From the NCBI RefSeq assembly GCF_000376105.1, contig NZ_AQWM01000028.1, positions 1 through 49,567 on the forward strand: DNA of 49,567 bases, in the 5' to 3' direction. The position numbers and the translations under genes were made by a program. This document shows, in pieces, positions 2,593-28,180 of this stretch. How positions within the stretch are numbered: the stretch's first letter is position 1; each line of letters opens with the position of its first letter. Below the pieces are notes generated by a model. It was given only the letters and a program-made list of their open reading frames with translations. It was not told where the DNA came from and made no database searches. The DNA comes from Asticcacaulis benevestitus DSM 16100 = ATCC BAA-896. Its GTDB lineage: Bacteria; Pseudomonadota; Alphaproteobacteria; Caulobacterales; Caulobacteraceae.

Positions 2593-3492
2593 ATGTCGCC
2601 AGACGCTCTTGACCATCTTCCGGACATCAAACGCCGCGAGCTTGAGCACGTGGTGAAGGTGTTGTTCGACGCCTTTGGAGATGCCACAAAGACGAAGATG
2701 TCTGATAAGCGCAAGGCCGGCCGCATCCTCAAGGTAATCCTGTTCGGGTCCTACGCACGCGGCGACTGGATTGAAGACCGCCTATCGGGCTATCGCTCAG
2801 ACTACGACATCCTGATCGTGGTCAGTGGCCATGAGCTCACCGATTTGCAGGAATACTGGTCGGTGGCGGACGACACCTTCGTGCGCGAATACACCCTCAC
2901 CCATGAGCTAAAGACGCCGGTCAGTTTTATCGTGCACAGCCTCCAGGATGTGAACGACCAACTGGCGCGTGGGCGGCCCTTCTTTAGCGACATCGCACGC
3001 GACGGTATCATGCTGTTTGAGGCCGAGGGGCATCCGCTGGCGAAGGCAAAACCGCTATTGGCGGATGAGGTCAAGGTTGAGGCGAAGGGCTATTACGATC
3101 AATGGATGCCCCGTGCGCTAGAGTTTCTCGCCGGGACAGTGTTCTATTTAGAACGCGGAAATCTCAAAATGACTGCATTCCATCTACATCAGGCGGCCGA
3201 GGCCCTGTACCACTCTCTACTTCTCACTTTGACGCTTTATAGCCCGAAATCGCACCGACTCAGCTTTCTGCGATCGCAAGCTGAGGGCCTCAACGCAGGG
3301 CTACGGGACGTCTGGCCAGACGACAGTAAGTTCGCGCGGCGCTGTTTCTCGAAGTTGCAACGGGCCTATGTAGAAGCGCGTTATTCAGCGGAATATGAAA
3401 TTACGGCTGAAGAACTGGAATGGCTGCAAGAGCGGGTTGGCCTGCTGACGGAGAAGACAAAGCAAATTTGCGAAGCGCACGTCGCGAAATAA
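2593..3492 (+). CDS. MNT nucleotidyltransferase-HEPN fusion protein
   Basis: A 299-residue protein joining two domains that are usually separate partners of a toxin-antitoxin pair. The N-terminal minimal nucleotidyltransferase has the GSYARGDW signature (52-59) and the paired aspartates of SDYDILIV (69-76). The C-terminal half (about 140-290) looks like a HEPN domain: the AFHLHQAAEALYH helix, a long second helix, and RYSAEY near the end. In MNT/HEPN pairs the HEPN part is an RNase and the MNT part modifies and restrains it; a strict R-x4-6-H catalytic motif is not obvious here, so RNase activity is uncertain. It converges on the AAA+ gene (73 bp between stops) beside an RNA-repair operon, which suggests a role in RNA damage or its control. 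No strong ribosome site precedes the ATG. Confidence 0.75.
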   Translation: MSPDALDHLPDIKRRELEHVVKVLFDAFGDATKTKMSDKRKAGRILKVILFGSYARGDWIEDRLSGYRSDYDILIVVSGHELTDLQEYWSVADDTFVREYTLTHELKTPVSFIVHSLQDVNDQLARGRPFFSDIARDGIMLFEAEGHPLAKAKPLLADEVKVEAKGYYDQWMPRALEFLAGTVFYLERGNLKMTAFHLHQAAEALYHSLLLTLTLYSPKSHRLSFLRSQAEGLNAGLRDVWPDDSKFARRCFSKLQRAYVEARYSAEYEITAEELEWLQERVGLLTEKTKQICEAHVAK

Positions 3493-5973: not shown

Positions 5974-8193
5974 TCACCTCATCATAAAACGGCTACGCAA
6001 GGTAATGATGTCCCGCGTCAGATCTTCATCGTTGAGGCGTTCTGCCCATTCGACAAAAGCCAGGGCATCACTTCCCCATTGGCCAGCCTTAGAACGGTCG
6101 TAAGGTCGTCCCGACTGATGCGCAGCCAGAATGCGCTCCTTCTGGCCACGCATGGATTTCCAGAACGCATAATAGGGTAGCTTGATCTTGAACATGAAGC
6201 CCGCCGCATCTTCGATTACAAAACCTTCGATATGCCGTCCGTTGAAGGTGTAATCCCGGCCCGCTGCATTAACGCTGGCGAACCACACTTTAAACGCACC
6301 GAAGTCGTCAAAGCGGAGTCCATCCTGCTTTACACCAAGACTGAATTCCGCCGCCAAGGCCTGCAAATCCGCATAGCCAAGACGAGCGAATGTCTCAGTC
6401 CGGTGAATCGCATCGAGTAGTACGACATGGCGCTCCGTATATTCGATCATGTGCGGGTCGTTGACTGGGTCATTGACCTCAAACACAAGGCCCAAATTTT
6501 CGTCGCGCAGACGCGCCTTCAACCCTGCCAGTCCGCCCTCACCAACCTGCATGGTGACGATGTCACGGAACCAGCCCGCGAACTCGGACTCCGGTGTCGA
6601 TTTCGACGCGAAGAACAGCTCGTCCGCACCGGCATCGAAGCCGAGAATACCGAGAAAGCCGTTCTCCTTGACGAAAAGGCGCAATGGAAAGCTCAGGCTG
6701 CGCTCAAGATTGCGCATCTGGGTTTCCGCCCGTTCTTCAAGGTTGAAGAACTTGTCATAGGCGCGCGCCACGATCCGGCGGTCGTCAGCCACAAACAGCC
6801 CGCGCGCGGACAAGGTCGTGGCGTCCCACGCACCCTTCTCAAACGCACCGCGCGTGAAGTTGTACGATGCGAGGCCGGGGAAACGTGCGAAACGCTTTTC
6901 CGCAACATGCTTGTGGCCTTTCAAAGCAGCCAGCGCTCCTTCGGAGATCAGGCTGCGAGGATCAGGCGCAAAGGCCGATGGCTTCTCCTTACGGTGGATC
7001 GCGTTGACCACGCGTATGGTTTCGAACCCGCCCGCACCATCCAGCACCATTACGCTCAGGCAGCCGCCGAACTCGACCTCGGATTCGAGGTTGAAGCTGT
7101 TGGCGGACGCCTGGATCGGCAGCTTCGCGCTGTTGCGGTGGCCGTGCACTTGCAGCCAGTTCGTTCCGGCCATCGTACCTGCAAAGGTGGCATCGACCGG
7201 ATCTTCATAGCGTCCCGTACCTTTCCACATCTGGAGCGATGGGATCAGCAACAGGTCTTCGGCCACACGAGACAAGCCCGCATGGGTGACCAGAACGCGA
7301 TGCGGCCCATATTCGTAAACGAAAACGTCCTTCAGCCGCGCTACTAGACGCTTGGCCTCACCCACGGTGAAGTTGGCGGCCAACAATTGCGGAAGCGTGT
7401 TGTGTTCGAACTCCTTCGACACCGGTGGCTGCCCGTTACCGAAGCGATGAATATGGCACTCATGGTTGCCGTAAATCAGTGCAACGTTCTCACGTGGCAG
7501 CAGTTCGTCGACGACAAAGCGGATGACCTTGTCGTTTTCGATACCGCGATCGAGGAAGTCACCGACGAAGATGTAGAACTCATCGTCCTTGAACCCGCCC
7601 TGAAAATACTCAGCCACCGGCGCGTAACAGCCTTGCAGATCGCCAATGTGATGGACGCGTGCATAGGCATTAAGATCACGTACGGGGTCGGTGAGCGCAG
7701 ACAGAAGCCCACCGTCGCCCAAGTCTTCCGGACGCAAAACCTTCAGGCCTTTTGGCAAGGGACTCGACGCGAACCGCTCATAAGCCCGATCGATCACCGA
7801 CTCCGGCACCTGCTTCCATTGAGGACGCATCAGGTTACGTGCTTTGGCTGTCTCAGGCGACACCCCTGAAAAGTCGAGGCACGTCACGCGGTAGGCGTAT
7901 TTCGACGCCAGTGCCATAGGCATCTTGAAATCGCGCTGCGACTGGAAGGTGGCGTCGAACAGGATGAATTCGCCCCGCGACATCTTCTGTTCCAGCAGGC
8001 GCTCGACCTCCTCCCATACCTTTCGGTCATTGTTGGGATTAATGCTGATACGCCCGTCGGGCAGCATGATGACGCCCCCCATCTGCACCCGCAGGGCGTC
8101 GGGCGATAAGGCGTAAGGCTCAAGCCCCGCTTCCGCGATAAAGGTGGATTTTCCGGCGCCTTGCGCGCCACGCATAATGACCAGATGTCTCAT
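5974..8193 (-). CDS. Polynucleotide kinase-phosphatase-RNA ligase fusion
   Basis: A 739-residue RNA end-healing and sealing enzyme. Residues 1-165 form a P-loop kinase (GAQGAGKST, 9-17; FDATFQSQRD, 79-88). Residues 175-400 form a calcineurin-like phosphatase with GDLQGCY (184-190), GDFLDRG (211-217), GNHECHIH (242-249), THAGLS (303-308) and VHGHRN (349-354). Residues 430-739 resemble the T4 Rnl1/Trl1 RNA ligase: KFFNLEE (481-487), nucleotidyl-lysine motif KENG with K509, and ELFFASKS (525-532). Together they would phosphorylate 5' ends, remove 2',3'-cyclic phosphate or 3' phosphate and seal breaks, much as bacterial Pnkp or phage T4 Pnkp-Rnl1 repair cut tRNAs. It is third in the rsr operon, 48 bp after the helix-turn-helix gene. 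Substrate is inferred. Confidence 0.87.
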   Translation of the reverse strand: MRHLVIMRGAQGAGKSTFIAEAGLEPYALSPDALRVQMGGVIMLPDGRISINPNNDRKVWEEVERLLEQKMSRGEFILFDATFQSQRDFKMPMALASKYAYRVTCLDFSGVSPETAKARNLMRPQWKQVPESVIDRAYERFASSPLPKGLKVLRPEDLGDGGLLSALTDPVRDLNAYARVHHIGDLQGCYAPVAEYFQGGFKDDEFYIFVGDFLDRGIENDKVIRFVVDELLPRENVALIYGNHECHIHRFGNGQPPVSKEFEHNTLPQLLAANFTVGEAKRLVARLKDVFVYEYGPHRVLVTHAGLSRVAEDLLLIPSLQMWKGTGRYEDPVDATFAGTMAGTNWLQVHGHRNSAKLPIQASANSFNLESEVEFGGCLSVMVLDGAGGFETIRVVNAIHRKEKPSAFAPDPRSLISEGALAALKGHKHVAEKRFARFPGLASYNFTRGAFEKGAWDATTLSARGLFVADDRRIVARAYDKFFNLEERAETQMRNLERSLSFPLRLFVKENGFLGILGFDAGADELFFASKSTPESEFAGWFRDIVTMQVGEGGLAGLKARLRDENLGLVFEVNDPVNDPHMIEYTERHVVLLDAIHRTETFARLGYADLQALAAEFSLGVKQDGLRFDDFGAFKVWFASVNAAGRDYTFNGRHIEGFVIEDAAGFMFKIKLPYYAFWKSMRGQKERILAAHQSGRPYDRSKAGQWGSDALAFVEWAERLNDEDLTRDIITLRSRFMMR

Positions 8194-8241: not shown

Positions 8242-8472
8242 CTATTCCTTAGGATCGATCAGGCCTTTAATCTCATATGGCATTTCGCCGGTAATTTCAT
8301 ACAATTTTAGCCAGGCTCTGACGGCGGCGGCCGCCGGTCCTGGAACCGGCAGCCCCGCGAACCAGCGAGAAACTGAGGAGCGATCTACCCCCAAGGCTTC
8401 CGACAAACGCGACATCCAGCCGCGTTCACCGAAAAGAAAGATAGCCGCCTGCCTCAGTTCCTCCGCCGTCAT
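8242..8472 (-). CDS. Small helix-turn-helix protein of the rsr operon
   Basis: A 76-residue protein. Residues 16-45 (WMSRLSEALGVDRSSVSRWF) form a clear helix-turn-helix of the XRE/Cro type, followed by a short proline-rich segment and helix. The ATG at 8472 lies 3 bp after the rsr stop, so it is translationally coupled to rsr. It could repress the operon by binding the GTTGC/GCAAC inverted repeats that flank the RNA array, but that is inference. Such small proteins usually bind DNA as dimers; there is no second domain to give a sensor function. Confidence 0.72.
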   Translation of the reverse strand: MTAEELRQAAIFLFGERGWMSRLSEALGVDRSSVSRWFAGLPVPGPAAAAVRAWLKLYEITGEMPYEIKGLIDPKE

Positions 8473-8475
8473 GGT

Positions 8476-9789
8476 TCAGGCCTCGCTGACGTTAAGCTGG
8501 AAGGTTTCCTGCTCACGTAGGAAGGTCAGCACATTTTCGGAAAAACCGTCGATGTGCGTCCATGTCCCGTAGCCGACGCCATGGCGGGCGGAAGCGACGT
8601 TGATCATGTAGGCCTTGGCGGCCACAGGATCAGGCACGACGTCCTGGCTTTGTTCGTCGGTGATCACGATGAGGCGATCATGTTTGATCGCGTTCACATG
8701 CGTCACCGCCTTACCGAGCAAGGTGCCGTTGGACGGTTGCGACCTTATGATCGCATCGATCCCGGCCATCCCCCGACGCGGCGGCACTTCAATCACTTCG
8801 TTGGAGAAGCTGAAGACCCGCACGTCGCCAGGGATGATGGACGCCAGCGTCGCCGCCGCATCCATGCGCGTCAGGTCGGATTTCGCCGATAGACGCACAT
8901 TCATCGACGGTGATACGTCGACCAGGATCAGAGTCCGCCCCTTAAGAACGGGTTGTTCCAAGATGGTCTCGGCCAGGGCCTGATCGAGCCACGGTTCGAA
9001 CCGGGGGGCCGCCCGCGCTGCCGCCACATACCGGAACGGCAACACACGCTCGGCACCACGACGCGCAAGGATTGCATCCTTGACCAGCGCTTCGTCAACG
9101 CCGGCCTGATCCATGTTCCGCAGGTTACGCAACAGTGCCAGATAGCCGAGCTTTCGCTCGCCCAGCAGGCGCGTAAAGGTCGCGGCCTTGTCCGCCCCGC
9201 CCGACAGCGCCACCTCCCACGTGTCGGGAGAGGCAAGCGTCTTATCGACCAGTTGCTTCCAGATCTCGGCCTGGGCCGTATCCCTGGGTTTGGCGTGACA
9301 CAGGAACAAGACGTCGCGCAGTTTGACGTCTCCGTCGCGGTCGTACTTGGCCAGTTGGTAAGCGTCGAATTTGACGAAGGCGCGCGCAAGGCCCAGCTTC
9401 ATCTGCTTCGACAACGGACGTTTGCCGTTACGCCAGTACAGCGTCACAAGCTCGGTCATTTCGTCGGCCCGCTGGATCACACGCTCAATCGTCGGTGCGA
9501 CCATGGGGCCGCCCTTGGCGATCAGCGCGCACAGCAGCATCAGCGGAGCGTGCCGCAGCTTCATCAGCTCGCGCGCTTCGACCGCTAACGCAGCCAGGAT
9601 TTCTGACGGCACTTCAACCGCGAGCGCAAGGATGCGATCGGCGATCGTCTGACCGTCTTCATAGAATTCGTTTTCCCACAACAGGCAGGACAGAACCGAA
9701 CGCCGAAGCTTTTGTTCGACAGTCAGTTCCCGCGCTGGGGCGCCCTCGTGCGTGATGCCGGGGACCTTTTTGAAAATATTGAACCGCAT
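8476..9789 (-). CDS. rsr: Ro60-family RNA-binding protein (TROVE plus VWA)
   Basis: A 437-residue Ro60 orthologue. The N-terminal ~260 residues form the alpha-helical HEAT-like TROVE ring, with AARAAPRFEPWL near its end. The C-terminal VWA domain has the MIDAS motif DVSPSMN (DxSxS) followed by a threonine/aspartate segment, VITDEQSQD. Ro60/Rsr proteins bind misfolded RNA ends in the ring and Y RNA on its outer surface; bacterial Rsr works with nucleases or RNA-repair enzymes. The start at 9789 has a near-perfect AAGGAG at the right spacing; the longer frame to 9891 has no domain support. It lies directly downstream of four Y-like RNAs and starts an operon with a helix-turn-helix gene and an RNA kinase-phosphatase-ligase. 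Confidence 0.92.
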   Translation of the reverse strand: MRFNIFKKVPGITHEGAPARELTVEQKLRRSVLSCLLWENEFYEDGQTIADRILALAVEVPSEILAALAVEARELMKLRHAPLMLLCALIAKGGPMVAPTIERVIQRADEMTELVTLYWRNGKRPLSKQMKLGLARAFVKFDAYQLAKYDRDGDVKLRDVLFLCHAKPRDTAQAEIWKQLVDKTLASPDTWEVALSGGADKAATFTRLLGERKLGYLALLRNLRNMDQAGVDEALVKDAILARRGAERVLPFRYVAAARAAPRFEPWLDQALAETILEQPVLKGRTLILVDVSPSMNVRLSAKSDLTRMDAAATLASIIPGDVRVFSFSNEVIEVPPRRGMAGIDAIIRSQPSNGTLLGKAVTHVNAIKHDRLIVITDEQSQDVVPDPVAAKAYMINVASARHGVGYGTWTHIDGFSENVLTFLREQETFQLNVSEA

Positions 9790-9923
9790 TGGGCTCTCCT
9801 TTTCCGGACATCGAGGCGCAAAGCGGCCTTCACCGGACACCGTGTCCGATGGCATTTGCGCGTGTAATGGGCTGAGGCGGCGGCAGGCCATACAATTGGC
9901 GGACGCTGCGAGATGGGTGTTTA

Positions 9924-9953
9924 GTGCGTAGCAAGGCTAGAACGCACCTTGCT
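9924..9953 (-). promoter_or_regulatory. Competing hairpins in the rsr leader
   Basis: On the minus strand AGCAAGG (9953-9947) pairs with CCTTGCT (9936-9930). GTGCG (9947-9943) can instead pair with CGCAC (9928-9924). The two stems exclude each other and lie between Y-like RNA 4 and rsr, 135 nt before its start. This could be an attenuator or a processing site; there is no clear U-run. Confidence 0.35.
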
Positions 9954-9968
9954 GCTACTGATTACGTT

Positions 9969-10087
9969 CCGGGGGTACGGACGGGATCGTCAGCCCCTCC
10001 CCCAGCGAACCGGGTTTGGGTTGGGGAGTCGAACCCCGGCCTTGCGGCTTCTCCAGATCGATGAAAACGTATCCCTACGCCACCCGG
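9969..10087 (-). ncRNA. Y-RNA-like RNA 4 (nearest to rsr)
   Basis: Read on the minus strand: CCGGG, loop TGGCGTA, then GGGAT(A)CG on the 5' side; CGATCCC, loop GTCCGTACC, then CCCGG on the 3' side. The helices pair fully except for one bulged A, and the internal loop has the same 7 by 9 nt shape and sequence as in RNAs 1-3. The conserved TTTCATCG follows the second helix. Inside are a GCC-GCAA-GGC hairpin and a T-arm, GGGG-TTCGACT-CCCC, but no good D-arm, so the tRNA-like module is degenerate. ACCGGGT/ACCCGGT (10088-10082, 10015-10009) could also close a tRNA-like cloverleaf instead. Ends are approximate. Confidence 0.68.
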
Positions 10088-10145
10088 TGTGCCGCTCAAA
10101 TGGTTCCTATTGCAGGCCTGTTTAAGCGACGAGGCAGTTACTAAC

Positions 10146-10169
10146 GCAACTTGTTGCGTAATGCAACAA
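10146..10169. promoter_or_regulatory. GCAAC/GTTGC palindromes, right side of RNA 4
   Basis: GCAAC-TT-GTTGC (10146-10157) overlaps TTGTTGC-GTAAT-GCAACAA (10151-10169), giving three alternating half-sites. The second palindrome matches TGTTGC-ATACC-GCAACA at 10629-10645. It sits between RNA 3 and RNA 4. A repressor operator is the simplest reading; as RNA it would form a hairpin just after the TTTTT tail of RNA 3. Confidence 0.5.
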
Positions 10170-10176
10170 AAATGAT

Positions 10177-10344
10177 TCAGAATCGGCTTTCCGGGAACAA
10201 GCGAATCCGGTGGGAGGTGCTTCCGCCGGATATTGCCGTATCCGGGCCACGCTGGCTTGACGGAAAAACCGTCATCCAGGGCTCACCATTTCCCGAGGTG
10301 GCAGCGAAGAAACCGAACTCTACACCACGGAAAACCAACTCTGA
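10177..10344 (-). ncRNA. Y-RNA-like RNA 3
   Basis: On the minus strand TCAGAGTTGGTTTTCCG pairs with CGGAAAGCCGATTCTGA as a 17-bp helix (G-U allowed). This is followed by the internal loop TGGTGTA opposite GCTTGTTCC, then GAGTTCGG/CCGGATTC (8 bp), then the shared TTTCTTCG motif. The apical region has no T-arm or D-arm but holds strong hairpins, TGACGG-TTTTT-CCGTCA and CCGGATA-CGGCAA-TATCCGG. The 3' end is followed by ATCATTTTT, which fits a Rho-independent end for the whole array. It shares the putative Rsr-binding stem but not the tRNA mimicry. Confidence 0.72.
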
Positions 10345-10347
10345 GAC

Positions 10348-10473
10348 GGCCAGGGAAAAAACGACAACAGCAGGTGCTCTACCCCTGAGCTACGCGAAGG
10401 AACCTTCACGACCGGATTCGAACCGGCGACAACCTCGTTATGAGCGATGAAGCTGTTGTCTGCGCCACTGGCC
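10348..10473 (-). ncRNA. Y-RNA-like RNA 2 with permuted tRNA module
   Basis: On the minus strand GGCCAG/CTGGCC, internal loop TGGCGCA opposite GTTTTTTCC, then GACAACAGC/GCTGTTGTC (9 bp). The apical part reads T-arm (CCGGTTCGAATCCGG, 10426-10412), a closed 7-bp acceptor-like hairpin (CGTGAAG-GTTC-CTTCGCG), TA, and D-arm (GCTCAGGGGTAGAGC, 10390-10376). That is a tRNA opened at the anticodon and closed at the acceptor. A bulge on the 5' strand contains CTTCATCGCTCATAACG, resembling an elongator-Met anticodon loop and also the shared TTCATCG motif. It is not a translating tRNA: no free acceptor or CCA end. Confidence 0.8.
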
Positions 10474-10617
10474 GCAGTTGTCAGAGGGAACAGACGAAAG
10501 CGCCTATTCTGTTGCTCTATCCAATTGAGCTACCCGGTTGCCCGGGGCCGGCTTCGAACCGGCAACCTACAGATTAACGAAGGAATCGCTTTCTACACCA
10601 CTCTGACAAAGCAGCCA
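10469..10617 (-). ncRNA. Y-RNA-like RNA 1 with permuted tRNA module
   Basis: On the minus strand TGGCTGC/GCGGCCA, TTGTCAGAG/CTCTGACAA, internal loop TGGTGTA opposite GTCTGTTCC, GAAAGCG/CGCTTTC, an asymmetric loop with TTCCTTCG, then TCTGT/ACAGA in the place of an anticodon stem. The apical module follows as a 5-nt AGGTT variable loop, T-arm (GCCGGTTCGAAGCCGGC, 10563-10547), closed acceptor hairpin CCCGG-GCAA-CCGGG, TA, and D-arm GCTCAATTGGATAGAGC (10530-10514). This permuted order is what is described for bacterial YrlA Y RNAs. Its outermost stem overlaps that of RNA 2 by a few bases, so the two outer stems compete unless the RNAs are made separately. Confidence 0.82.
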
Positions 10618-10628
10618 TTACGGGCAAA

Positions 10629-10645
10629 TGTTGCATACCGCAACA
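10629..10645. promoter_or_regulatory. TGTTGC-ATACC-GCAACA palindrome upstream of RNA 1
   Basis: A perfect 6-bp inverted repeat with 5-bp spacer, 12 bp before the predicted 5' end of RNA 1. It is the same sequence type as the palindromes at 10146-10169, with a further single GCAACA half-site at about 10695. The position suits an operator over the promoter of the RNA array; the small operon-encoded helix-turn-helix protein is a candidate ligand. Confidence 0.5.
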
Positions 10646-10926
10646 GGTAAAGTGCCCTTTGAGTTCGTGCACAGCGAATAGTGTTTCAAATGCAACAATA
10701 TCATAGTGGTGGCTCCTGCGCGCCCAATCAGGAAATAGATTGTTCGTGGAGGTAGATCTCGCGACCATAAGCAGACATCAGCTAGCTGCAGGTGTGAAAA
10801 ACTCCATCGACTGCGCCCATATCCGGTGGGCATGTAAACTTCTTTTGGTGCGGTTTTAATGCCACAAGGGGGCGCTAACATGGCGTCGAAGCTTGTGGGC
10901 GCCGTCTCAGCACTTATGTTTCGCTG
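10646..10926. other. Intergenic region, presumed promoter of the Y-RNA/rsr array
   Basis: No convincing coding sequence. Minus-strand frames here lack ribosome sites and recognisable domains. I looked for a sigma-54 promoter of the RtcR-controlled type (GG, 10 bp, GC) and did not find one. Confidence 0.4.
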
Positions 10927-11139
10927 ATGCGGACACTCATCTATATATTACTTTTCATTTTAATAGCCGTTCTTGCTGCCACGTTTGGCCGCTCTATTGG
11001 CCGTTCCGTTAAGGGTGGTATAGCATTTGCGTCGGTTCTGCTTGGCGTGGGCGTAGTTATGGACTCACCAGCGCGCCATGGCATCGAGGCTGTTGAAAGC
11101 GAGCGCGACGATTCTGAAGCTTCGAAAGATGGCGAGTAA
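10927..11139 (+). CDS. Small membrane protein, unknown
   Basis: A 70-residue protein. The N-terminal LIYILLFILIAVLAATFG is a strong membrane helix, followed by a second hydrophobic stretch (IAFASVLLGVGVVM) and an acidic tail. It is opposite in direction to both neighbouring blocks and separates the RNA-repair and defence blocks. No family recognised, and the ribosome site is weak, so it may not be a real gene. Confidence 0.42.
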   Translation: MRTLIYILLFILIAVLAATFGRSIGRSVKGGIAFASVLLGVGVVMDSPARHGIEAVESERDDSEASKDGE

Positions 11140-12318: not shown

Positions 12319-12984
12319 TCAAACGAACCAATCTTTGCGATCACGAGTCGCCCCCTGAAGTATTCGATCGTAGGTTGCCACTCGAACCTTGTCTCCCAAG
12401 CCCTCAAATTCGGCGCGGCATCTCTGTTGCGCCTCGGTCTCCGTCTGGGAATTGCCGATGACGAGAATGATGCCCTTTGGTGACGCTAAATGGGTCAGCC
12501 CAGTATTTGATCGCACCGTCTCGATATAGTTCAGGAAATGCGCGTAGTAACCGGCGCATTGTGCAATGGCTTTATGTCCGTCAGTCGAATATCCGTCGCC
12601 CCGGGCGTTTGAAAACTGCACGTCAGGCCGCTTCAGCTCGACGATCCACCAATACAAACCTAAGGAATTGCGGTTCGCCACCAGGAAGTCAGGTATGAGG
12701 CCCGGCCGACCGTCCACAGAAGAGGTGCGGATCGTCCGCTTGGGATAGGCCCATGTACCGTGGTGACCGGACTCGGGAATCACATACTGGAGCAGATAGG
12801 GGTTCGCTTCTATTGCTCGATGGATACTTTCCTCATTTCCGTCTTCAAGCGCCATTTGGAAGTCACGGAAATGGTCCTTGTTCAGATTGTTGATGTTACC
12901 ATAACATGAGCCTGGAAACTCAGCGGCGGCCCTGCGTTCATCTTCCTCGGTCCACCGGGCCGGCTTTATTTCAAATCTCGCCAC
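12319..12984 (-). CDS. Shedu-like (DUF4263) nuclease
   Basis: A 221-residue protein with a PD-(D/E)xK nuclease core: IPDFLV (D99), WWIVELKRP (E116, K118), and a helix with Q142 in KAIAQCAGYYAHF. This layout fits SduA of the Shedu anti-phage system, a single-gene defence nuclease. An N-terminal helical region (1-70, with HRAIEANPYLLQ) corresponds to the variable sensor part; it is short compared with many SduA proteins. The GTG start at 12984 has GGAGATGAT before it. It lies 103 bp after gajB on the same strand. Whether it acts alone or with its neighbours cannot be told from sequence. Confidence 0.75.
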   Translation of the reverse strand: MARFEIKPARWTEEDERRAAAEFPGSCYGNINNLNKDHFRDFQMALEDGNEESIHRAIEANPYLLQYVIPESGHHGTWAYPKRTIRTSSVDGRPGLIPDFLVANRNSLGLYWWIVELKRPDVQFSNARGDGYSTDGHKAIAQCAGYYAHFLNYIETVRSNTGLTHLASPKGIILVIGNSQTETEAQQRCRAEFEGLGDKVRVATYDRILQGATRDRKDWFV

Positions 12985-13087
12985 ATCATCTCCGATTGTT
13001 AAGTCGATCGTCAGCGCGATCTGAATCGCGGTCGGATTGTTTTCAGATCATTACTGAAGGTTTTGCTATCGACAAGTCAGTTGCAAT

Positions 13088-14512
13088 TTATGGAATAACC
13101 GGACGCCTTGCGAAAGCACTGATCGTCCGAGCCCCCCTCGACAAAGCGACGTACAGATGTTCTCGGCTCATTCGGTTCTTAGGATTATCGGCGTCAAGAA
13201 TGATCACGTGGTCAGCTTCCAGCCCTTTCAGCAACAGGGTGGACCCAATCGACTTCGGTGCGATGTCGCGGCCGGAATGCCGTCTTTGCTCCCTGAGACC
13301 GACGGTGTATGTCGCCAGATCTTGAGGCGCGCCTTGCACCACCGACTTCAATGCCTCCAGCATCATGTAGTAGGCACTGTCTCTATAAATGCGCCGCGAG
13401 GTGTCTGCTGACATAACCTTGAAAAAAGCGATAACTTCCGCGTACCCACCACTTTGATTGACGGCCAGGGCCGCCATCTCAGCAGGCGTAGGCTCGGTAC
13501 GATTTCGGCGATTCAAAATCGACTGAATTCGGGTTTGGATTTGCGTGCCACCTACGTTCGTCATCACCGAAGAGAGAAAATCCAGTGAAGCCTGTAAAAG
13601 CGGCGCGCCAACTTGGCTATTCATCGACCTGGCGCTCGCCACCACATCGCCAAAATCGACCGGTTCCACCACGCTGACGCCATGCGCCCGGCTAGCATAA
13701 TTGTGCCGCGAAGTGGCCTGGATCGAATCCCCAATAATCAAAATGGATTGGCTAGGATATTGGCGAGATAGCTCATACTGAACGCGAACCTGAGTGGTGA
13801 TGTTTTGATTGAAGTCGTTTGTCAAAGGGTACCAGGTCACGTGCCCCGGGCAGGTTCGAAGGTCAATCTGATGACTGTTCTGTAAAGCCTGCCGAGCGCC
13901 AAGTAGCCAGACACCTAGATTGTTCGCACCAACCCGATTCCACCGCCAGGGTGTTTGTAGCGTTCCAAGAAGTGGAAATGTGCCCATGACATCATTCGTC
14001 CAGTCGGGAAACGGCTCCCGTCGGAAGTTGAAGATGCACTGCATTGGATCTCCGAAGACAACCGTGGGCAAGACACGGGCTAGGCCACTGACAATGCCGT
14101 GCTGGTTGGACGTGCAGTCCTGATATTCATCAACAAACAACCGCCCGTAGGTCGCTCTGATTTCGGAATTAATATGACCGGACTTACAAAGGGTGCCGAT
14201 CGCGTTCTGAATAGCGACATAGTCGGGATTTTGGGTCACATCATGTGCGTAACCGGCTCGCTCCGGAAACATTGAGATTAATGCCAATGCCCAGCCCGCG
14301 ATCGTGTTCAGCCTGTAGGCACTTGACGGGACGCCAAGTCTCTTCAACCGTGCCCGCAGAACGGCAACCCCGGCCGTTGTGTGTGTGAGGAGAAGCGATG
14401 GTTTTGTCGCCTGTTGCGCGACAGAGGCGACAATGAGTTCAGTCTTCCCGCATCCCGCCGGCGCAACTACACACCCCCTCGCCGTACCCAGCACATCAGC
14501 GACGTCGACCAT
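13088..14512 (-). CDS. gajB: UvrD-like helicase, Gabija GajB-like
   Basis: A 474-residue superfamily 1 helicase. Motif I is APAGCGKT (17-24), motif II LFVDEYQDC, a FGDPMQCIF motif III, KGLEADHVIILDAD (motif V area) and YVALSRGARTI (motif VI). The length and the pairing with an OLD-type ATPase-TOPRIM gene fit GajB of the Gabija anti-phage system, which forms a complex with GajA and responds to DNA ends and nucleotide depletion. The ATG follows the gajA TAG with no gap (TAGATG), so the pair is translationally coupled. A general repair helicase is less likely given that linkage. Confidence 0.83.
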   Translation of the reverse strand: MVDVADVLGTARGCVVAPAGCGKTELIVASVAQQATKPSLLLTHTTAGVAVLRARLKRLGVPSSAYRLNTIAGWALALISMFPERAGYAHDVTQNPDYVAIQNAIGTLCKSGHINSEIRATYGRLFVDEYQDCTSNQHGIVSGLARVLPTVVFGDPMQCIFNFRREPFPDWTNDVMGTFPLLGTLQTPWRWNRVGANNLGVWLLGARQALQNSHQIDLRTCPGHVTWYPLTNDFNQNITTQVRVQYELSRQYPSQSILIIGDSIQATSRHNYASRAHGVSVVEPVDFGDVVASARSMNSQVGAPLLQASLDFLSSVMTNVGGTQIQTRIQSILNRRNRTEPTPAEMAALAVNQSGGYAEVIAFFKVMSADTSRRIYRDSAYYMMLEALKSVVQGAPQDLATYTVGLREQRRHSGRDIAPKSIGSTLLLKGLEADHVIILDADNPKNRMSREHLYVALSRGARTISAFARRPVIP

Positions 14513-16300
14513 CTACTGAATACCACCTGGTCGCGGAAGCGGCCGCGCTGTCGGCGATTGCTGTATCCAGTCCCAGAGCGCCCCAAAAGGCGCAGCGAAT
14601 GGTGCGGCCACCTGCCCAAATCCCGGTCCAACCACTTCTCTCATAAGGCGTTCCGCAGGCTCAATGTCCTTAAACCAACTGCCAGATTTATCCTTGGCGG
14701 CTGTGCCCAGCACAGGGCGCATGGCCTCCTCGAAATGAAGCAAGCATGCACCAAGGCTATATGTATTATTGCTAAAGCGTTTGATGAGCGTATCGACAGA
14801 GTCCTGGGACTTCCATTGTACCGCGATGTTCAGCAGTAATTCGATATGGGTTGGAGGCACTGACGCAAACAGGGCCTCTTCCGTCGATAATGGATCCGGC
14901 CAGCGGAAGACGGTGATATTCCTTTGCGCGAGCTCGGCATATATCTGAGGGTCGTAGACGACGTCGGAATCCATGAACAGAGCTGTACGATAGCCCATGT
15001 CAGCAAAGATTTTAGCCCGCTCAAACATGGTCGATCCATTGCCATCGGCCCAGTGACATCCATGGGCCAGCATGCTGTGTTGCCCCTGAGCCTGGGCGTG
15101 CAAATCGAAGCCACGCAGCAATCCGATCTCAGTCTTGCCTTCACAAACGATGACATTAGGCGCCAGAAATGCCTCGGAGCAGGCGCGCAGTGTCTTCTGC
15201 GCCTCTTCCCTGTCTCCTAACGGCCTAATCCAATTTTGGGTCACACGGATGGGAACGCCTCCCTCCACACCCGGCATTGGAGGAATAACCGCTTTTGTCG
15301 TTCTCATCGCGTGCAATTGAACAGACGATAACTCTTTTAATACAATCGGAGAATGCGTGGTCAAAAACACTTGTTGCGTGGAATCATTCGTCTTGGCCCC
15401 CAGAGAGTCTAACAGCCTGACGATCCGGTATGGCTCCAGTCCAAACTCGACTTCATCAACAATAAAGATGGTTGAGTTGCCGACCGATTTTTGCAATCCG
15501 GCGACAAGAAGACGCATGGAACCACTGCCCAGACTTCGCATAGGCACATGGTCGTTGTCATGAAGGGCGATGGCCCCGCCCGTAAAGGTCACCCCTCGGA
15601 CGTCGAGCAAGGCCTTAATATCATCCACGCGGATGCCCATATTATGCGCGATCGTCCTGGATGCGGACAGGATGTCTTCCACGCCCTCGCATCCCTGATC
15701 GGCAAAGGCCTGTCTCGCCTGCCTCGACGCCGCCGCCAATGCCGCCGACGCCTGGGACATGTCAGAAGACAGTTTACCCAATACCGATCTGGGCCCTAAA
15801 GCCATATGGTGGGCTGCAGTCGCACCTAGTCTAACAGGTGCCACATTCTGACGGTGTTTGAACAGGATGTTGCGCTCCCGCCCCTCCGCCGCCGGACCGT
15901 CCGAATATAGCGACCAAAAGGGCTCGAGATCCGCGCTCACGAGGAGGCGTAAGGTCAGGACCGTCTCCAAATGCGCGGCCGTTTCACTTTGCATCTCGCC
16001 GGTGCGTGGATTCCATCCGCGGAAAAAATGTCCATATACCTCAAGATTCAACAATTCATCATCGAGAGATCCAAGCGTCACATCGATAATGATGGATGAC
16101 GAGGTATCGCAGCGATGGAAATCTGCGTCAGTAAAGCTATAGCTCTGACGAGCACCGAGATTTAATTCGATGGCGTCGAGGATAGTGGACTTTCCCCCGT
16201 CTCCGGGTCCGATAAGGCAATTGATACCTGAGTTTGGCCACCATTTGAGATGCGAAATTACTCTGAAATGTCGAATTTCAATCTCACGAATCACCGTCAT
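14513..16300 (-). CDS. gajA: OLD-family ATPase-TOPRIM nuclease, Gabija GajA-like
   Basis: A 595-residue protein. An N-terminal ABC-type ATPase has a slightly unusual Walker A, GPGDGGKST (31-39), the signature GSGSMRLLVAGL, Walker B IFIVDEVEFGLEP and a TTHSPIVL switch histidine. A C-terminal TOPRIM domain has NVIVCEGKTEIGLL (acidic Glu) and ALFMDSDV (DxD). This domain order is that of GajA, a DNA-nicking endonuclease inhibited by nucleotides until phage infection depletes them. The start at 16300 (MTVIREIEIRHFR) follows AAGGTGGGG and puts the ATPase at the N-terminus; a longer frame reaches 16351. gajB follows directly. Confidence 0.85.
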   Translation of the reverse strand: MTVIREIEIRHFRVISHLKWWPNSGINCLIGPGDGGKSTILDAIELNLGARQSYSFTDADFHRCDTSSSIIIDVTLGSLDDELLNLEVYGHFFRGWNPRTGEMQSETAAHLETVLTLRLLVSADLEPFWSLYSDGPAAEGRERNILFKHRQNVAPVRLGATAAHHMALGPRSVLGKLSSDMSQASAALAAASRQARQAFADQGCEGVEDILSASRTIAHNMGIRVDDIKALLDVRGVTFTGGAIALHDNDHVPMRSLGSGSMRLLVAGLQKSVGNSTIFIVDEVEFGLEPYRIVRLLDSLGAKTNDSTQQVFLTTHSPIVLKELSSVQLHAMRTTKAVIPPMPGVEGGVPIRVTQNWIRPLGDREEAQKTLRACSEAFLAPNVIVCEGKTEIGLLRGFDLHAQAQGQHSMLAHGCHWADGNGSTMFERAKIFADMGYRTALFMDSDVVYDPQIYAELAQRNITVFRWPDPLSTEEALFASVPPTHIELLLNIAVQWKSQDSVDTLIKRFSNNTYSLGACLLHFEEAMRPVLGTAAKDKSGSWFKDIEPAERLMREVVGPGFGQVAAPFAAPFGALWDWIQQSPTARPLPRPGGIQ

Positions 16301-16600
16301 TTTGGCCCCACCTTTTTTGTCAGTATCATCATACTTATAACGACGAAGCATTCAATCTTAAGGCGAACAATAAAGCTAGGCAGCTAATATAGCGAACAGC
16401 GTCCCCAAGCCCCGGGGACGTTTCGGGTCGACAAGTAAGCGAATCCGTCTCAAATGTTCTGATAAGAAACAGGCGATTTCGTTGGTAGCTCTAAGAAACG
16501 GCAAGATCATGGACCGCTATCCAATATATTATATGAGGAAAGCAGAAGGTAGCCACGCATGAGACAGGGTAGGCTGAAATCTCAAACCGGGCTGAAAGCG

Positions 16601-19600
16601 CTATTCGAAAGTTACGTTTCGGTTCGACTCGCTCCTGTTAAACATCCGTTCCCAGGCGTCACCACTCGCCATCAACGCTTCATATCCCTGCTGCGTGGCG
16701 AGATCGACTGGACCACCGGTACCATCCGCCAGCGCGCGTACGAGCTCCGCTCGCTCACGAAGGACATCCGCCACGCCGCCATCCCCACCTCGAGGATGAG
16801 CCGTATCGATAGCTATGCGAATAATGGCCAGCCTGTCGGGTGCGTGTTCCAGTATAGCAGATCCCAACTCGGACCACTGCTCTGATTTACTGCCCTCGCC
16901 CGCCTCTCGCCGACGATCGAAGAATTCCAAAGATTTCGCGATCAGTAGGAACCGATGATCGGGGTCAACTTCGCACCAGGCGAGGACTTGGGCAGGGCTG
17001 AGCGAACTTAGGGCTGCCGTATCGTAACGGCTTGAGCGGCCTAGGGCCGCCATAAGTTGCTCATCTTCGGCGAACATCCCCGACTGGAGCAGTTTATCCA
17101 GAATAGCGGTTCCGAAAATTTTGAAGAGCTCGCCGAGTACATTCTTGTCTTTCCAGACGTGGATATAAGTCCGAAGGCGCCAGTGTATATATCCCTTCGC
17201 GACCGCTCCAGCGGCCTCAATCTCCGTGTCGTTGGGAAATGCGAAGGTCACCAAATCTGCCAAATGATGCGCATCACTGTGATCAAGACGCTCGAGATCT
17301 TTCCATGGCACAGAACCGAGAAATTCCCTGGTCAGCGCCTGCATGCCCTGACGATCGCGTGTCGTTTTGTCCTGATCGTAGGCTGCCCAGAACATCATCT
17401 CCAATGCCGATGGAAATCCGTCGGTCTTACCTTGGACGGTGTCGACAAGCCTACGCACTTCGTCAATCGATAAAATGCGAAGACTATGGGCCAGCGACTT
17501 GTAATTCCTGATGGGCGTTCGTTCAAGGACCACCGGATCGAGAACGCGCTCCAGACTGCGGCCGTCCAGCTCAAAGTGTCCCTGCAAATGGACGAAAACA
17601 GGCCCCCAGATCGAATCTGAAAGCGCACTGTCGAGGAACCGCTCGAACTGTTCCGCGCTCCGTGCCTTCGCCGCTCTCAAAAGACAGCTCAGAGCATACA
17701 GCTGCTCGGGCTGGGGGAGCCCACTATAAGCAAACTTCAATTTATCGAACAGCCGGGGAATGTCAGGATAAGCCGCACCAACGCCCTCACCGAAAGCCGC
17801 GCCTGTGTTATAATTGGTCTGCTGGAAAATAAGGTGCAGAACCTCATCTAGGGCAGCATCGTCAAATGCCGCCTGCCGCCCAAGCTCCCTCGCACGATTG
17901 TGCCAGACTAAATATCGGGCTGAATAATCGAAATCTTCCCCAGGCGCATCCTCCTCGATATCCTGAAGACTAAGGTTCTTGAGCCCAAAAACCTGCGCCT
18001 TGATACGGGTCACAAGGGTCGATGGCTTCAATCTCTCCTGAAGACTCTCCAGCCGGGCACGCGCCTCGGGGCTAAGCGTCCGCGAATGGTAGTAGGCGGT
18101 CGATTTGGCGCCGAGCCATCCTTCAGGCCACCCATCGATCGCAGAGAACAGGTTGGCGATGCGGTCCAGGTCGTCCCATAAGTCCCTAAACTCCCAAAGG
18201 TCTGAAATCTTGTCAGCGACGCGCTTACGAACCTCCCCTCCCAGAGGTCCGGCCTCCTGTCCGAGCCTCGCGGAGAAGTTCAAAAACAGTCGATACCATT
18301 CGGCGATTTCGCTTCCCGTCTCCGGAAAAAAACCAAAGCCCATCCGCCTGGCGCCAAAGTCCGCCGACACTCCCCGGCTGATGCGGGTACCAAGGGCTGT
18401 GTCGAGCAGCGAAAATCCAATTGCCTCGAGCTTAGCATCACCTGTCCTCAGTAGGCGCTCGAGGATCCTGGCCCTTTCCGCTGGCAAAGCATCCGTCCCA
18501 GAAAACTGAATTTGATACAGGCGTTCAAGCAGACTTCGTACCGCGACATGGCTGCTGTTGCCGTCCTCCTTCAGAACAAACGCAGCTAGGATGTACACGC
18601 ATCGTTCGAAATACTGCGGTTCGTAGGCGATATTGCGCACTAGGTGCGCTATGCGGCTCCGATCAAAATTTCGGGTCGAAAGAAAAGCCTCGTCGCCTAT
18701 CGCCACCTCAAGTAAAGTAAGCGCGCGTTCGGGTTGGAGGGGAGCGAGGTTGCAGAAAATATCAAGACTTAGCCCCTCGAGCGCCGCGACTTTCGTAAGA
18801 CCGTTGCCGTCAGACAACCACCTAACAGCAAGAGCCATTGCAATCGGGGATTCATGCAAATAACTGAGCCGTCGCGAAAATGACCGGGCAAGCCTTAGCG
18901 AGCCACATGCCAGCTTCGCCCAGAGCATGTCTTGAGGTACATCATCAAGTGCCCGCAGAGCCAGCCGGTTCGATATTGCGTGAGGCAGCAAGGCGCGCCA
19001 ATTAGCCCGTTTCTGAAGGAGCCCCCGCCGGCCAAGGTCATTCAGGCAGTTGCGCATCTTCAACATAGTTAGGCCCGCCAGCTCGGACAGGGTTGCCAAC
19101 TCACTGTCTGGGACGTCGGAGGTTTCACCATCGAAAGAGTAAACTAGCGAAGCCGCCGTCGCGCTCGCCAGGAGCTCAGAACTGGAACCCTGACGTTGAG
19201 AGAAGAGGCGGTCGAACAGTTCATTGTTTCTAAGTTGCGCAAGTTCTCCGCCCTGCTCCGCCGTTCCCGCCAGAACAATGGCCACCCGCGCGTTCCCTCC
19301 CGAAAAGTCTATGATGTGTTCCACGTCATTGTCGCTGAGGTAGTTGTAGCGCCGTCGTACAAGCGCTGAGACCAACTCGTTTGAAGCCGGTTCAAGGCGG
19401 TAAGCCTGCGTCTCCAACGATAGGTCGTCGCGGATGTCGTATTCAATGGTTAGCAGGCTCAGATGGCTGTTGTCCGCCGCGACAATCTTGACCAACCGCT
19501 CATGCAAATCGGCGCCGCAATTGTCGACGACCAGAACCATCCGCCGATTTTCCGCAATAAGCTGATCCGCCATATGGTTCGGAGCTGGTGACGGTTCATC

Positions 19601-20428
19601 CCCCAGATCGGTATATAGAACCGTATCCGGATTAAGGGCCGGATGGTCGGTTTCCACCCTGTCGTCGAAAAGCGCCTGAACTAGTCTTGTCTTTCCCACA
19701 CCTGACAACCCGATCAGTCTCAAGCATTGGCCTGGTTGGCCTAGCCGCTGGCGCATATTTCCAATCGCCGTAAGCGCCGAAACTGACTCCTCCTCGCCCG
19801 GGATAAACGCTTTCACCTCTGGGTCATCGAGGAATTGGGCGTCAGAGGTTGTTTCCATATAGGCCCACGGCCCGTATGACTTCCATCCCTCACTAGAACG
19901 CCCAGCCAAAGCCCTGACCCAGGGCCCGAGCGATTTATGCTCCGATGCCCAGTCCGCGAGCGCACGGCGCCCGTAGTAGTCGACGCCAAGGGTCCTGAGC
20001 TCATGCTGATCTGCGCAGTCACGCATTACGATTTTTCGCTCTCGCAGACGTCGGTCAGCAACTGATGCCCGGGAACTAGCAATGATATAAATCCCACGCG
20101 CTTGATCCAGTTCCGCTAAAGCTGGCCGAACGACATCCCCTGGAAACATCTCCACACGGATTTTTGCTGGAGGTAGATCCTCAGCCTTAATCTGAAAGAC
20201 AGTATTGCGATCGGGTACCCAGCCGGTTATCTCAACGTCCTCCGGAATAGATATGCGCACGTCGATTCCGCCGTCTGAAGCGCGTTGGTCTCCGTCCCAA
20301 GTCACGTAGGCGGGCGACAGACGATTCTTACGCATCTCAGCCTGACATAAGCGCGCGACTAGTATTCGGAGCTGCACGTCATCCAATGAAGCGATGTCGT
20401 CACTACTGATATCTAGATAAGTGTGCAT
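16601..20428 (-). CDS. Mrr-like nuclease-STAND NTPase (Avs-like)
   Basis: A 1275-residue protein. Residues 40-140 form a restriction-like domain with DGGIDVRI (52-59) and FQIKAED (78-84), a PD-(D/E)xK variant with Q in place of E. Residues ~215-400 are a STAND/AAA NTPase with Walker A GLSGVGKT (240-247) and Walker B MVLVVDNCG (297-305). The remaining ~850 residues are mostly helical and repeat-like, as in sensor regions. This layout matches Avs-type antiviral STAND proteins, where the C-terminal part recognises phage proteins and the N-terminal nuclease degrades DNA. The ATG at 20428 follows AGGGG. It is 300 bp upstream of gajA on the same strand. I cannot assign it to a named Avs type. Confidence 0.73.
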   Translation of the reverse strand: MHTYLDISSDDIASLDDVQLRILVARLCQAEMRKNRLSPAYVTWDGDQRASDGGIDVRISIPEDVEITGWVPDRNTVFQIKAEDLPPAKIRVEMFPGDVVRPALAELDQARGIYIIASSRASVADRRLRERKIVMRDCADQHELRTLGVDYYGRRALADWASEHKSLGPWVRALAGRSSEGWKSYGPWAYMETTSDAQFLDDPEVKAFIPGEEESVSALTAIGNMRQRLGQPGQCLRLIGLSGVGKTRLVQALFDDRVETDHPALNPDTVLYTDLGDEPSPAPNHMADQLIAENRRMVLVVDNCGADLHERLVKIVAADNSHLSLLTIEYDIRDDLSLETQAYRLEPASNELVSALVRRRYNYLSDNDVEHIIDFSGGNARVAIVLAGTAEQGGELAQLRNNELFDRLFSQRQGSSSELLASATAASLVYSFDGETSDVPDSELATLSELAGLTMLKMRNCLNDLGRRGLLQKRANWRALLPHAISNRLALRALDDVPQDMLWAKLACGSLRLARSFSRRLSYLHESPIAMALAVRWLSDGNGLTKVAALEGLSLDIFCNLAPLQPERALTLLEVAIGDEAFLSTRNFDRSRIAHLVRNIAYEPQYFERCVYILAAFVLKEDGNSSHVAVRSLLERLYQIQFSGTDALPAERARILERLLRTGDAKLEAIGFSLLDTALGTRISRGVSADFGARRMGFGFFPETGSEIAEWYRLFLNFSARLGQEAGPLGGEVRKRVADKISDLWEFRDLWDDLDRIANLFSAIDGWPEGWLGAKSTAYYHSRTLSPEARARLESLQERLKPSTLVTRIKAQVFGLKNLSLQDIEEDAPGEDFDYSARYLVWHNRARELGRQAAFDDAALDEVLHLIFQQTNYNTGAAFGEGVGAAYPDIPRLFDKLKFAYSGLPQPEQLYALSCLLRAAKARSAEQFERFLDSALSDSIWGPVFVHLQGHFELDGRSLERVLDPVVLERTPIRNYKSLAHSLRILSIDEVRRLVDTVQGKTDGFPSALEMMFWAAYDQDKTTRDRQGMQALTREFLGSVPWKDLERLDHSDAHHLADLVTFAFPNDTEIEAAGAVAKGYIHWRLRTYIHVWKDKNVLGELFKIFGTAILDKLLQSGMFAEDEQLMAALGRSSRYDTAALSSLSPAQVLAWCEVDPDHRFLLIAKSLEFFDRRREAGEGSKSEQWSELGSAILEHAPDRLAIIRIAIDTAHPRGGDGGVADVLRERAELVRALADGTGGPVDLATQQGYEALMASGDAWERMFNRSESNRNVTFE

Positions 20429-28092: not shown

Positions 28093-28180
28093 GCAGCACC
28101 GCGACAAATGAATGCCCCGGCAGCCTGCCCGAAATTCATTTATCACAAAGCGCGGCAAATTGCATCATAGCAATTCCCTT

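What the first reader, a model, noticed from the sequence alone, without database searches (positions are those of the whole stretch)
9969..10617. Four tandem Y-RNA-like RNAs upstream of a Ro60 gene on a mobile element
Folding by eye gives four minus-strand RNAs (10469-10617, 10348-10473, 10177-10344, 9969-10087), each with long paired ends and the same internal loop, directly before rsr. Bacterial Y RNAs next to rsr are established knowledge (YrlA), normally one or two per locus. I know of no described four-member array with both tRNA-like and non-tRNA-like members, carried by an integrative element.
Basis: partly seen in the sequence, partly recalled or inferred. Interest (0 to 1): 0.93.

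Follow-up and report, generated by a model that had tools for sequence, protein, structure and literature searches.

The report
Four-member Y-RNA array feeding one Ro60
In front of a bacterial Ro60 gene, on a likely mobile defence island, lie four stretches of sequence, probably made into RNA, that share one covarying stem and internal loop predicted to dock on the Ro60 ring while their far ends differ, so one protein would be served by a set of interchangeable RNA adaptors.

Summary
A covariance model built from the third RNA and six relatives finds exactly the four proposed RNAs as top hits in 1.6 kb around the array, and 74 sites in 33 sources, 73 upstream of rsr and one in an array without rsr. 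The paired ends covary strongly. All four share one internal loop; the inner domains differ: two tRNA-like (YrlA-like, below Rfam's cut-off), one not tRNA-like, one with a T arm only. Corrections: the first RNA probably starts near 10609, and larger arrays are common in relatives and phages (19 of 43 loci have three or more). New here: the three distal RNAs fold as adjoining domains with 2- and 1-nt spacers behind one predicted promoter; a palindrome overlaps the predicted -35 of both units and accompanies a small HTH gene after rsr (18 of 18 loci with it, 0 of 19 without); a 90%-identical copy of just the three-RNA unit lies elsewhere in Asticcacaulis AC466 without rsr. The next gene is a kinase-phosphatase-RNA ligase where six relatives have RtcB or Hen1-Pnkp. 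Transcription, Rsr binding and function are untested. Verdict: new variant of a known kind.

The parts
10629..10645 (-). P1 palindrome TGTTGC-N5-GCAACA (operator-like); predicted -35 10643-10638, -10 10620-10615, start near 10608
   Evidence: exact match in genome search; 42-site profile with TA at +25/+26 (38 and 39 of 42), 17-nt spacer
10478..10609 (-). Y1: tRNA-like (YrlA-like) Y RNA module; 5' loop at 10601
   Evidence: Rfam YrlA 49.9 bits, below cut-off 69; model R1 E 6.9e-6; compensatory pair 10609/10478 against the free-standing copy; fold
10346..10475 (-). Y2: tRNA-like (YrlA-like) Y RNA module; 5' loop at 10468
   Evidence: Rfam YrlA 38.9 bits, below cut-off; model R1 E 1.5e-8; T and D arms
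10177..10344 (-). Y3: non-tRNA-like Y RNA module with 16-bp outer helix, followed by ATCATTTTT (possible terminator of unit 1)
   Evidence: fold z -4.8; 18 of 47 pairs with both-sided changes in 8 sequences; 13 of 43 pairs, 0/500 shuffles, in 7 sequences
10152..10168 (-). P2 palindrome TGTTGCATTACGCAACA (operator-like); predicted -35 10166-10161, -10 10143-10138, start near 10131
9969..10087 (-). Y4: Y RNA module with T-arm-like hairpin, lying in the predicted 5' leader of rsr; 5' loop at 10083
   Evidence: model R1 unfiltered E 0.0021; 16 of 25 pairs with both-sided changes in 11 Y4-type sequences; but fold z +0.18 alone and missed by the strict rule
8476..9789 (-). rsr (Ro60 orthologue, 437 aa; start at 9789 by length of homologues)
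   Evidence: TROVE 3.3e-12; model matches D. radiodurans Rsr 2nvo E 5e-13 and Ro60 1yvp E 1e-11
8242..8472 (-). HTH76, small helix-turn-helix protein, predicted regulator acting at the two palindromes
   Evidence: adjacent to rsr in all 17 rsr-bearing family genomes; confident 4-helix model
5974..8193 (-). kinase - calcineurin-like phosphatase - T4 Rnl1-like RNA ligase (739 aa), predicted RNA end healing and sealing
   Evidence: AAA_33, Metallophos, RNA_lig_T4_1; tRNA ligase 9qw7 E 3.5e-13

Best explanation
The region encodes four predicted Y RNAs that share one covarying stem with an internal loop, likely the part that docks on the Rsr (Ro60) ring, and that differ in the domain held at the far end, so that they would act as interchangeable adaptors for one Rsr. 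Shown by sequence comparison: the common module, its covariation, four different inner domains, recurrence upstream of rsr, and a free-standing copy of the first three. Inferred: a promoter carrying a palindromic operator (P1) makes one transcript with Y1, Y2 and Y3 as adjoining folded domains, and a second such promoter (P2) makes Y4 together with rsr, the HTH gene and the RNA ligase gene. The HTH protein probably represses both promoters by binding the palindromes. On induction, likely by RNA damage, Rsr would load onto each module. The tRNA-like domains of Y1 and Y2 would bring Rsr to proteins that handle tRNA, Y3 would bring a different partner, and Y4, in the leader of the rsr mRNA, could let Rsr limit its own synthesis. 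The kinase-phosphatase-ligase would heal and reseal cut RNAs, while Rsr with Y RNA would direct unrepairable ones to a nuclease such as PNPase, as in Deinococcus.
For: Module: 80 hits in 59 kb upstream of rsr against 0 in 435 kb elsewhere on the strand, 0 in 495 kb of the other strand and 3 in 1.48 Mb shuffled. Helices tested on 84 modules picked by loop motifs alone: outer positions 1-6 paired 0.869 against a shuffled maximum of 0.544, inner 0.871 against 0.645. Covariance model from Y3-type RNAs recovers all four in the window and 74 sites in 33 sources. Y3-type and Y4-type covariation. Free-standing P1-Y1-Y2-Y3 copy, 90% identical, 0 of 71 pairs broken. Three-domain fold of the predicted transcript with 2- and 1-nt spacers. 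Palindrome-promoter profile. Palindrome in 18 of 18 loci with HTH76 and 0 of 19 without a close copy. RNA-repair gene after rsr-HTH: RtcB in 3 and Hen1 with Pnkp in 3 of the 6 relatives looked at, and the ligase here. Rsr fold.
Against: No transcription or binding data. Y1 and Y2 stay below Rfam's YrlA cut-off. Y4 folds no better than shuffles on its own and fails the strict census rule. The generic scan found no sigma-70 promoter and no terminator in 9780-11000. Palindrome and HTH76 are both nearly confined to Caulobacterales, so their association is partly shared ancestry; 11 exact palindromes of 33 lie outside rsr loci and outside the free-standing copy. The HTH76 fold has no significant PDB match (best E 0.31). 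The ligase gene is in 1 of 199 family genomes, so it is not part of the conserved core. No evidence bears directly on PNPase or tRNA-enzyme partners.
Confidence: 0.72

Rival explanations
1. Poly-Y scaffold: Y1-Y2-Y3 stay joined as one RNA that carries up to three Rsr rings side by side, rather than being cut into separate Y RNAs.
For: The 445-nt predicted transcript folds into three closed domains with 2- and 1-nt spacers. Of 52 gaps between successive modules listed, 21 are 9-28 nt from loop to loop, leaving no room for promoters. The free-standing copy keeps the three together.
Against: Most other gaps are 57-116 nt or more. Some arrays carry a palindrome before single members (L033, L035, L042, L018). 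Known bacterial Y RNA is described as a modular RNA of 90-150 nt (PMC8394870, passages).
Confidence: 0.25
2. Leader attenuator: the modules are mainly cis-acting parts of the rsr operon leader through which Rsr or tRNA-binding factors control rsr expression, and are not free Y RNAs.
For: In 10 of 32 loci the last module ends 28-64 nt before the rsr start, too close for a promoter in between. Y4 follows P2 in the window.
Against: The free-standing three-module unit has no rsr within the 9 kb read around it. Modules 1-3 precede P2 and a possible terminator. In the window Y4 ends 184 nt before rsr.
Confidence: 0.15
3. Degenerate tRNA array: Y1 and Y2 are decayed tRNA genes picked up by a mobile element, and the stems are incidental.
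For: T and D arms resemble tRNA; mobile elements often carry tRNA genes (general knowledge).
Against: ARAGORN calls no tRNA here. The non-tRNA outer and inner helices covary across loci, Y3 has no tRNA part, and the module recurs upstream of rsr.
Confidence: 0.01

Closest known systems
YrlA-type bacterial Y RNA (Rfam RF02553; Salmonella, Mycobacterium)
   Same: encoded beside rsr; long stem formed by the two ends; tRNA-like domain with T and D arms in Y1 and Y2
   Different: scores below the Rfam cut-off in the window and in all 16 family loci scanned (best 57.2 of 69); loop strands GUGGYGYAG / CG-N-GUUCCC; several members per locus; Y3 is not tRNA-like
Salmonella rsr-yrlBA-rtcBA RNA repair operon
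   Same: rsr, more than one Y RNA and an RNA ligase in one locus (PMC7790460, passages)
   Different: Y RNAs lie before rsr; HTH76 and palindromes in place of RtcR; a kinase-phosphatase-Rnl1-like ligase here, RtcB or Hen1 with Pnkp in the six relatives looked at
Deinococcus radiodurans Rsr-Y RNA-PNPase (RYPER)
   Same: Rsr fold (2nvo); lower stem is the Rsr-binding part and the Y RNA the tether to PNPase (PMC4726728, passages)
   Different: one Rsr with four different far ends; no PNPase link tested here
Vertebrate Y RNA / Ro60
   Same: paired ends with bulges bound by Ro60 (PMC4726728, passages); four different human Y RNAs (PMC4030889, abstract start and passages); the consensus fold here leaves a single bulged pyrimidine in the conserved loop
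   Different: different sequences and inner domains; individual genes

Membership tests
Bacterial Y RNA (broad sense) | gene next to a Ro60/Rsr gene | tested here: met
   four modules directly upstream of rsr; recurs in relatives
Bacterial Y RNA (broad sense) | stem formed by the two ends with a conserved internal loop | tested here: met
   loop-selected modules pair far above shuffles; covarying pairs
Bacterial Y RNA (broad sense) | bound and stabilised by Rsr | not testable with these tools
   needs pull-down and an rsr deletion
Bacterial Y RNA (broad sense) | discrete small RNA made in the cell | not testable with these tools
   needs RNA-seq or Northern blots
Bacterial Y RNA (broad sense) | canonical Ro60-binding motif (bulged C in a 7-bp helix; GNCGAAG as recalled, not found) | tested here: inconclusive
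   loop G[UC]GG[CU]G[CUA]AG with a bulged pyrimidine resembles it, but helix and sequence are not identical
YrlA (Rfam RF02553) | score above the family gathering cut-off of 69 bits | tested here: not met
   Y1 49.9, Y2 38.9, Y3 and Y4 no hit
YrlA (Rfam RF02553) | tRNA-like domain | tested here: inconclusive
   Y1 and Y2 have T and D arms, Y4 a T arm only, Y3 neither
Ro60/Rsr protein | TROVE ring with vWA domain | tested here: met
   Pfam TROVE and VWA; fold match to 2nvo and 1yvp; D291-x-S293-x-S295 invariant in 24 sequences
rsr RNA-repair operon | RNA ligase encoded with rsr | tested here: met
   ligase gene starts 48 nt after HTH76 on the same strand; activity not tested
Integrative mobile element | recombinase and mobilisation genes | tested here: met
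   two large serine recombinases, MobA/L relaxase, TraG-like coupling protein
Integrative mobile element | attachment sites and integrated state | not tested
   the window is one whole contig; ends not resolved

The most novel reading that the evidence does not exclude
Bacterial Ro60 in this lineage and its phages works with a programmable set of Y RNAs: one docking module repeated 3-7 times in arrays under HTH76-operator promoters, each repeat presenting a different effector domain, with the Y1-Y2-Y3 unit remaining one transcript that gathers several Rsr rings. The unit can move by itself and serve an rsr elsewhere in the genome.
Probability: 0.3. Interest if true: 0.82.

Novelty: new variant of a known kind. 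Interest (0 to 1): 0.62.

Why it matters
What the far end of a Y RNA does, and why cells keep more than one, is an open question in both bacteria and animals. These arrays hold the likely Rsr-docking part constant and vary the rest within one locus, in harmless Caulobacterales. Deleting or swapping single members would show directly which partner each far end recruits. The shared loop and model also find Y-RNA-like modules that Rfam's YrlA cut-off misses, including two that overlap annotated tRNA genes in phage records, and the HTH-palindrome pair offers a candidate regulator other than RtcR.

Tried and rejected
A further YrlA-like hit in the same genome at C1:473047 is two tRNA-Pro genes spanned by the model. 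One search lists matches in 42 of 199 genomes, but most are 22-nt, 100% matches to query 311-332, which I read as tRNA D arms from their place in the query; those and a few other short ones (for example G149:C158, G082:C17) were not each checked and not counted. A conserved gene upstream of the array was sought in 7 relatives (9 upstream proteins; the tenth protein of that call was a downstream one) and not found. Tandem Repeats Finder finds no repeat in the region: the members are structural, not sequence, repeats. Six of the 20 sources gave no model hit (L055, L066, and the TROVE loci L074, L075, L076, L079 of other members of the phylum; the last four also none), so the loop motif is not universal; their flanks are short. 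L070 and L071 overlap L082 and L083.

Limits of the controls: the loop motifs were refined by reading these same loci, so the location contrast is partly circular; the helix test and the model are less so, although the model contains 7 of the sequences it finds. The shuffles keep pairs of bases only in blocks. Several of the 84 modules are plainly mispaired (for example L027 -626/-690, L050 -271), which lowers the observed value. One search left out L025, L044, L053, L060, L061, L062 and L064 as duplicates or cut loci. The strict census (0 in 7, 1 in 10, 2 in 7, 3 in 9, 4 in 5, 5 in 3, 6 in 2 of 43 loci; 3 control hits in about 543 kb) undercounts, gives the window 3, and includes L044 with only 71 nt upstream. 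In the palindrome-HTH comparison L037, L049 and L052 end at or within 15 nt of the end of the rsr match and L044 has almost no upstream sequence; these four are left out. L051 and L065 have only distant HTH relatives and are counted as without; L055 and L040 have less than 1.1 kb upstream.

Full report
What was claimed. Four minus-strand RNAs before a Ro60 (rsr) gene, each with paired ends and the same internal loop, on a mobile element.

Is it there? Yes. The loop 9-mer GTGG[CT]G[CT]AG occurs four times on the minus strand of the 49.6-kb window, once in each candidate, and once on the plus strand far away. Each copy has a partner strand ending in WWCCC, and both are enclosed by an outer and an inner helix. 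Rfam's YrlA model sees the first two with E 6e-10 and 1e-6, under its cut-off of 69 bits. Folding alone supports candidates 1-3 (z -5.2, -2.7, -4.8) but not 4 (z +0.18).

More than chance? A two-part scan of 42 rsr loci (one a duplicate, L025 = L041) gave 80 hits in 59,427 nt upstream of rsr, none in 435,254 nt elsewhere on that strand, none in 494,681 nt of the other strand, and 3 in 1.48 Mb of shuffled sequence. In 84 distinct modules chosen by loop motifs only, from 32 of 40 loci, outer positions 1-6 pair in 86.9% of cells (shuffled partners: mean 48.9%, maximum of 2000 shuffles 54.4%) and inner positions 1-6 in 87.1% (mean 58.9%, maximum 64.5%); there are 67 different outer 6-mers. The module also has a third conserved piece, C[AT]TCG, just after the inner helix in 67 of 84 (shuffled about 5%). 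Over 33 sources it finds 74 sites at E up to 0.01: 73 upstream of rsr on its strand and one in the array without rsr; seven of them are the training sequences. In a second set of 20 sources, two of which overlap the first set, it finds 31 sites in 14 of them, all upstream of rsr except one downstream in L068.

Anatomy. Y1 (10609-10478) and Y2 (10475-10346) carry T and D arms like tRNA; Y3 (10344-10177) carries several hairpins and nothing tRNA-like; Y4 (10087-9969) carries a T-arm-like hairpin. Y3-type RNAs in eight sequences have both-sided changes in 18 of 47 pairs; counted on seven sequences, 13 of 43 pairs and 27 cells, reached by none of 500 shuffles. Y4-type RNAs in eleven sequences have both-sided changes in 16 of 25 pairs. 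In the consensus fold of Y3 the loop keeps G-C pairs around one bulged pyrimidine, which recalls the bulged cytidine of the vertebrate Ro60 site (PMC4726728, passages); the resemblance is not a test.

Transcription units (predicted). A palindrome TGTTGC-N5-GCAACA lies at 10645-10629 and 10168-10152. In 19 Caulobacterales loci 42 such sites (up to one mismatch; two of them in L037, whose contig ends before the HTH gene) share a TA at +25/+26 (38 and 39 of 42), so TTGCRY inside the palindrome and this TA stand at -35/-10 spacing of 17 nt. The predicted start before Y1 (near 10608) falls on the first base pairs of its outer helix. The 445-nt stretch from there to the T run folds into three closed domains with spacers of 2 and 1 nt. 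Y3's 16-bp helix followed by ATCATTTTT could end the unit (inferred; the generic scan found no terminator and no promoter). The second palindrome precedes Y4 and rsr. In 10 of 32 loci the last module ends 28-64 nt before rsr; in the window it ends 184 nt before.

Regulator. A 76-aa HTH protein follows rsr. It is found in 18 of 199 family genomes: all 17 that carry rsr, adjacent to it, and one weak case, G117. The palindrome (up to one mismatch, within 1.1 kb upstream) is present in 18 of 18 loci with this gene and in 0 of 19 without a close copy; four cut loci are left out. Two of the 19 (L043, L046) have a two-mismatch site. L041 and L030, two rsr loci of one genome (Asticcacaulis AC466), differ in both features together. 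Of 33 exact palindromes in 199 genomes, 21 are in rsr loci and one in the free-standing array. The AlphaFold model is confident (pLDDT 93); the listed PDB matches are largely repressor- or antitoxin-type HTH proteins, best TM for Aca2 (0.69), none significant.

A free-standing copy. No rsr lies in the 9 kb read around it, while the genome has two rsr genes elsewhere. Of 71 helix pairs, 68 are unchanged, 1 changed on both sides, 2 on one side, none broken, among 35 substitutions in 518 aligned bases. This makes the three-RNA unit a separate entity.

Neighbours. rsr-HTH is followed by RtcB in L028, L029 and L030 and by Hen1 and a Pnkp-type ligase in L026, L034 and L047 (ligase domain only partly matched in L047); here by a kinase-phosphatase-T4 Rnl1-like ligase found in no other of 199 family genomes. 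The window also carries Gabija, Shedu, a PD-Lambda-4 protein and an IetA-like ATPase, a relaxase, a coupling protein and two large serine recombinases.

Rsr. The 437-aa model (pLDDT 86.5) matches phage Ro60 9kop/9l5y, D. radiodurans Rsr 2nvo and vertebrate Ro60 1yvp.

How common are arrays? Strict census of 43 loci: 19 have three or more modules, the most being six. The looser scan gives seven in L082, another alphaproteobacterium, two of them with a loop mismatch. The model gives six sites in Caulobacter phage CcrColossus (seven 5' loops by a relaxed pattern), five in Brevundimonas phage Kikimora, three in Xanthomonas phage Olaya and one on a Deinococcus gobiensis plasmid. Close relatives of this rsr are rare: 3 of 385 genomes of the class with this query, 17 of 199 of the family.

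What is known. From passages read: bacterial Y RNA is modular, 90-150 nt, with the stem binding Rsr and the tRNA-like end facing PNPase (PMC8394870); Salmonella has two in rsr-yrlBA-rtcBA (PMC7790460); phages with Ro60 genes have been noted (PMC7824862 and PMC7765460, passages). Recalled, not seen: Chen et al. 2014 reported Y RNAs near Ro60 in over 250 bacterial and phage species, at least one tRNA-like per species. Eight searches listed, by title and start of abstract, no paper on such arrays, but the main Y-RNA papers are not in that library, so absence from print is not shown.

Verdict. Real, conserved and covarying; a Y-RNA array by structure and place; a variant richer than the one- or two-member loci known to me. 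The function of the separate members is open.

Noticed in passing
L117:1618-1795 and L116:2319-2463: Genes annotated as tRNA-Gln (Caulobacter phage CcrColossus) and tRNA-Ser (Brevundimonas phage Kikimora) lie inside Y-RNA model hits before the phage Ro60 gene; they are probably tRNA-like domains of Y RNAs, not tRNAs.
   Followed up: partly
G119:C24:4045-4563 (L084): Three-member Y-RNA unit with its own palindrome and no rsr nearby, 90% identical to the window's.
   Followed up: yes
window 5974-8193: Single protein with kinase, calcineurin-like phosphatase and T4 Rnl1-like ligase domains; found in 1 of 199 family genomes.
   Followed up: partly
window 12319-20428: Shedu, Gabija (GajB, GajA) and PD-Lambda-4 genes in a row, a defence island.
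   Followed up: no
window 2593-3492 (+): Protein with nucleotidyltransferase and HEPN domains, possibly a toxin-antitoxin-like pair in one chain, at the far side of the island.
   Followed up: no
window 26686-28158: Large serine recombinase with a homing-endonuclease-associated repeat at its C-terminal side, next to a second large serine recombinase.
   Followed up: no
window 9958-9928: A hairpin-forming stretch (GTAGCAGCAAGG...CCTTGCTAC) follows Y4 before rsr; a similar stretch seems to follow Y4 in L026, read by eye only.
   Followed up: no
L028, L029, L030, L033, L035, L042, L018 upstream of the first or second module: Where the palindrome stands 61-66 nt before the 5' loop, a small hairpin seems to precede the Y RNA; where it stands 42-45 nt away it seems to be missing (read by eye).
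   Followed up: no
L068:7603-7755: The only model hit lying after rsr instead of before it (viral contig, E 0.0045).
   Followed up: no
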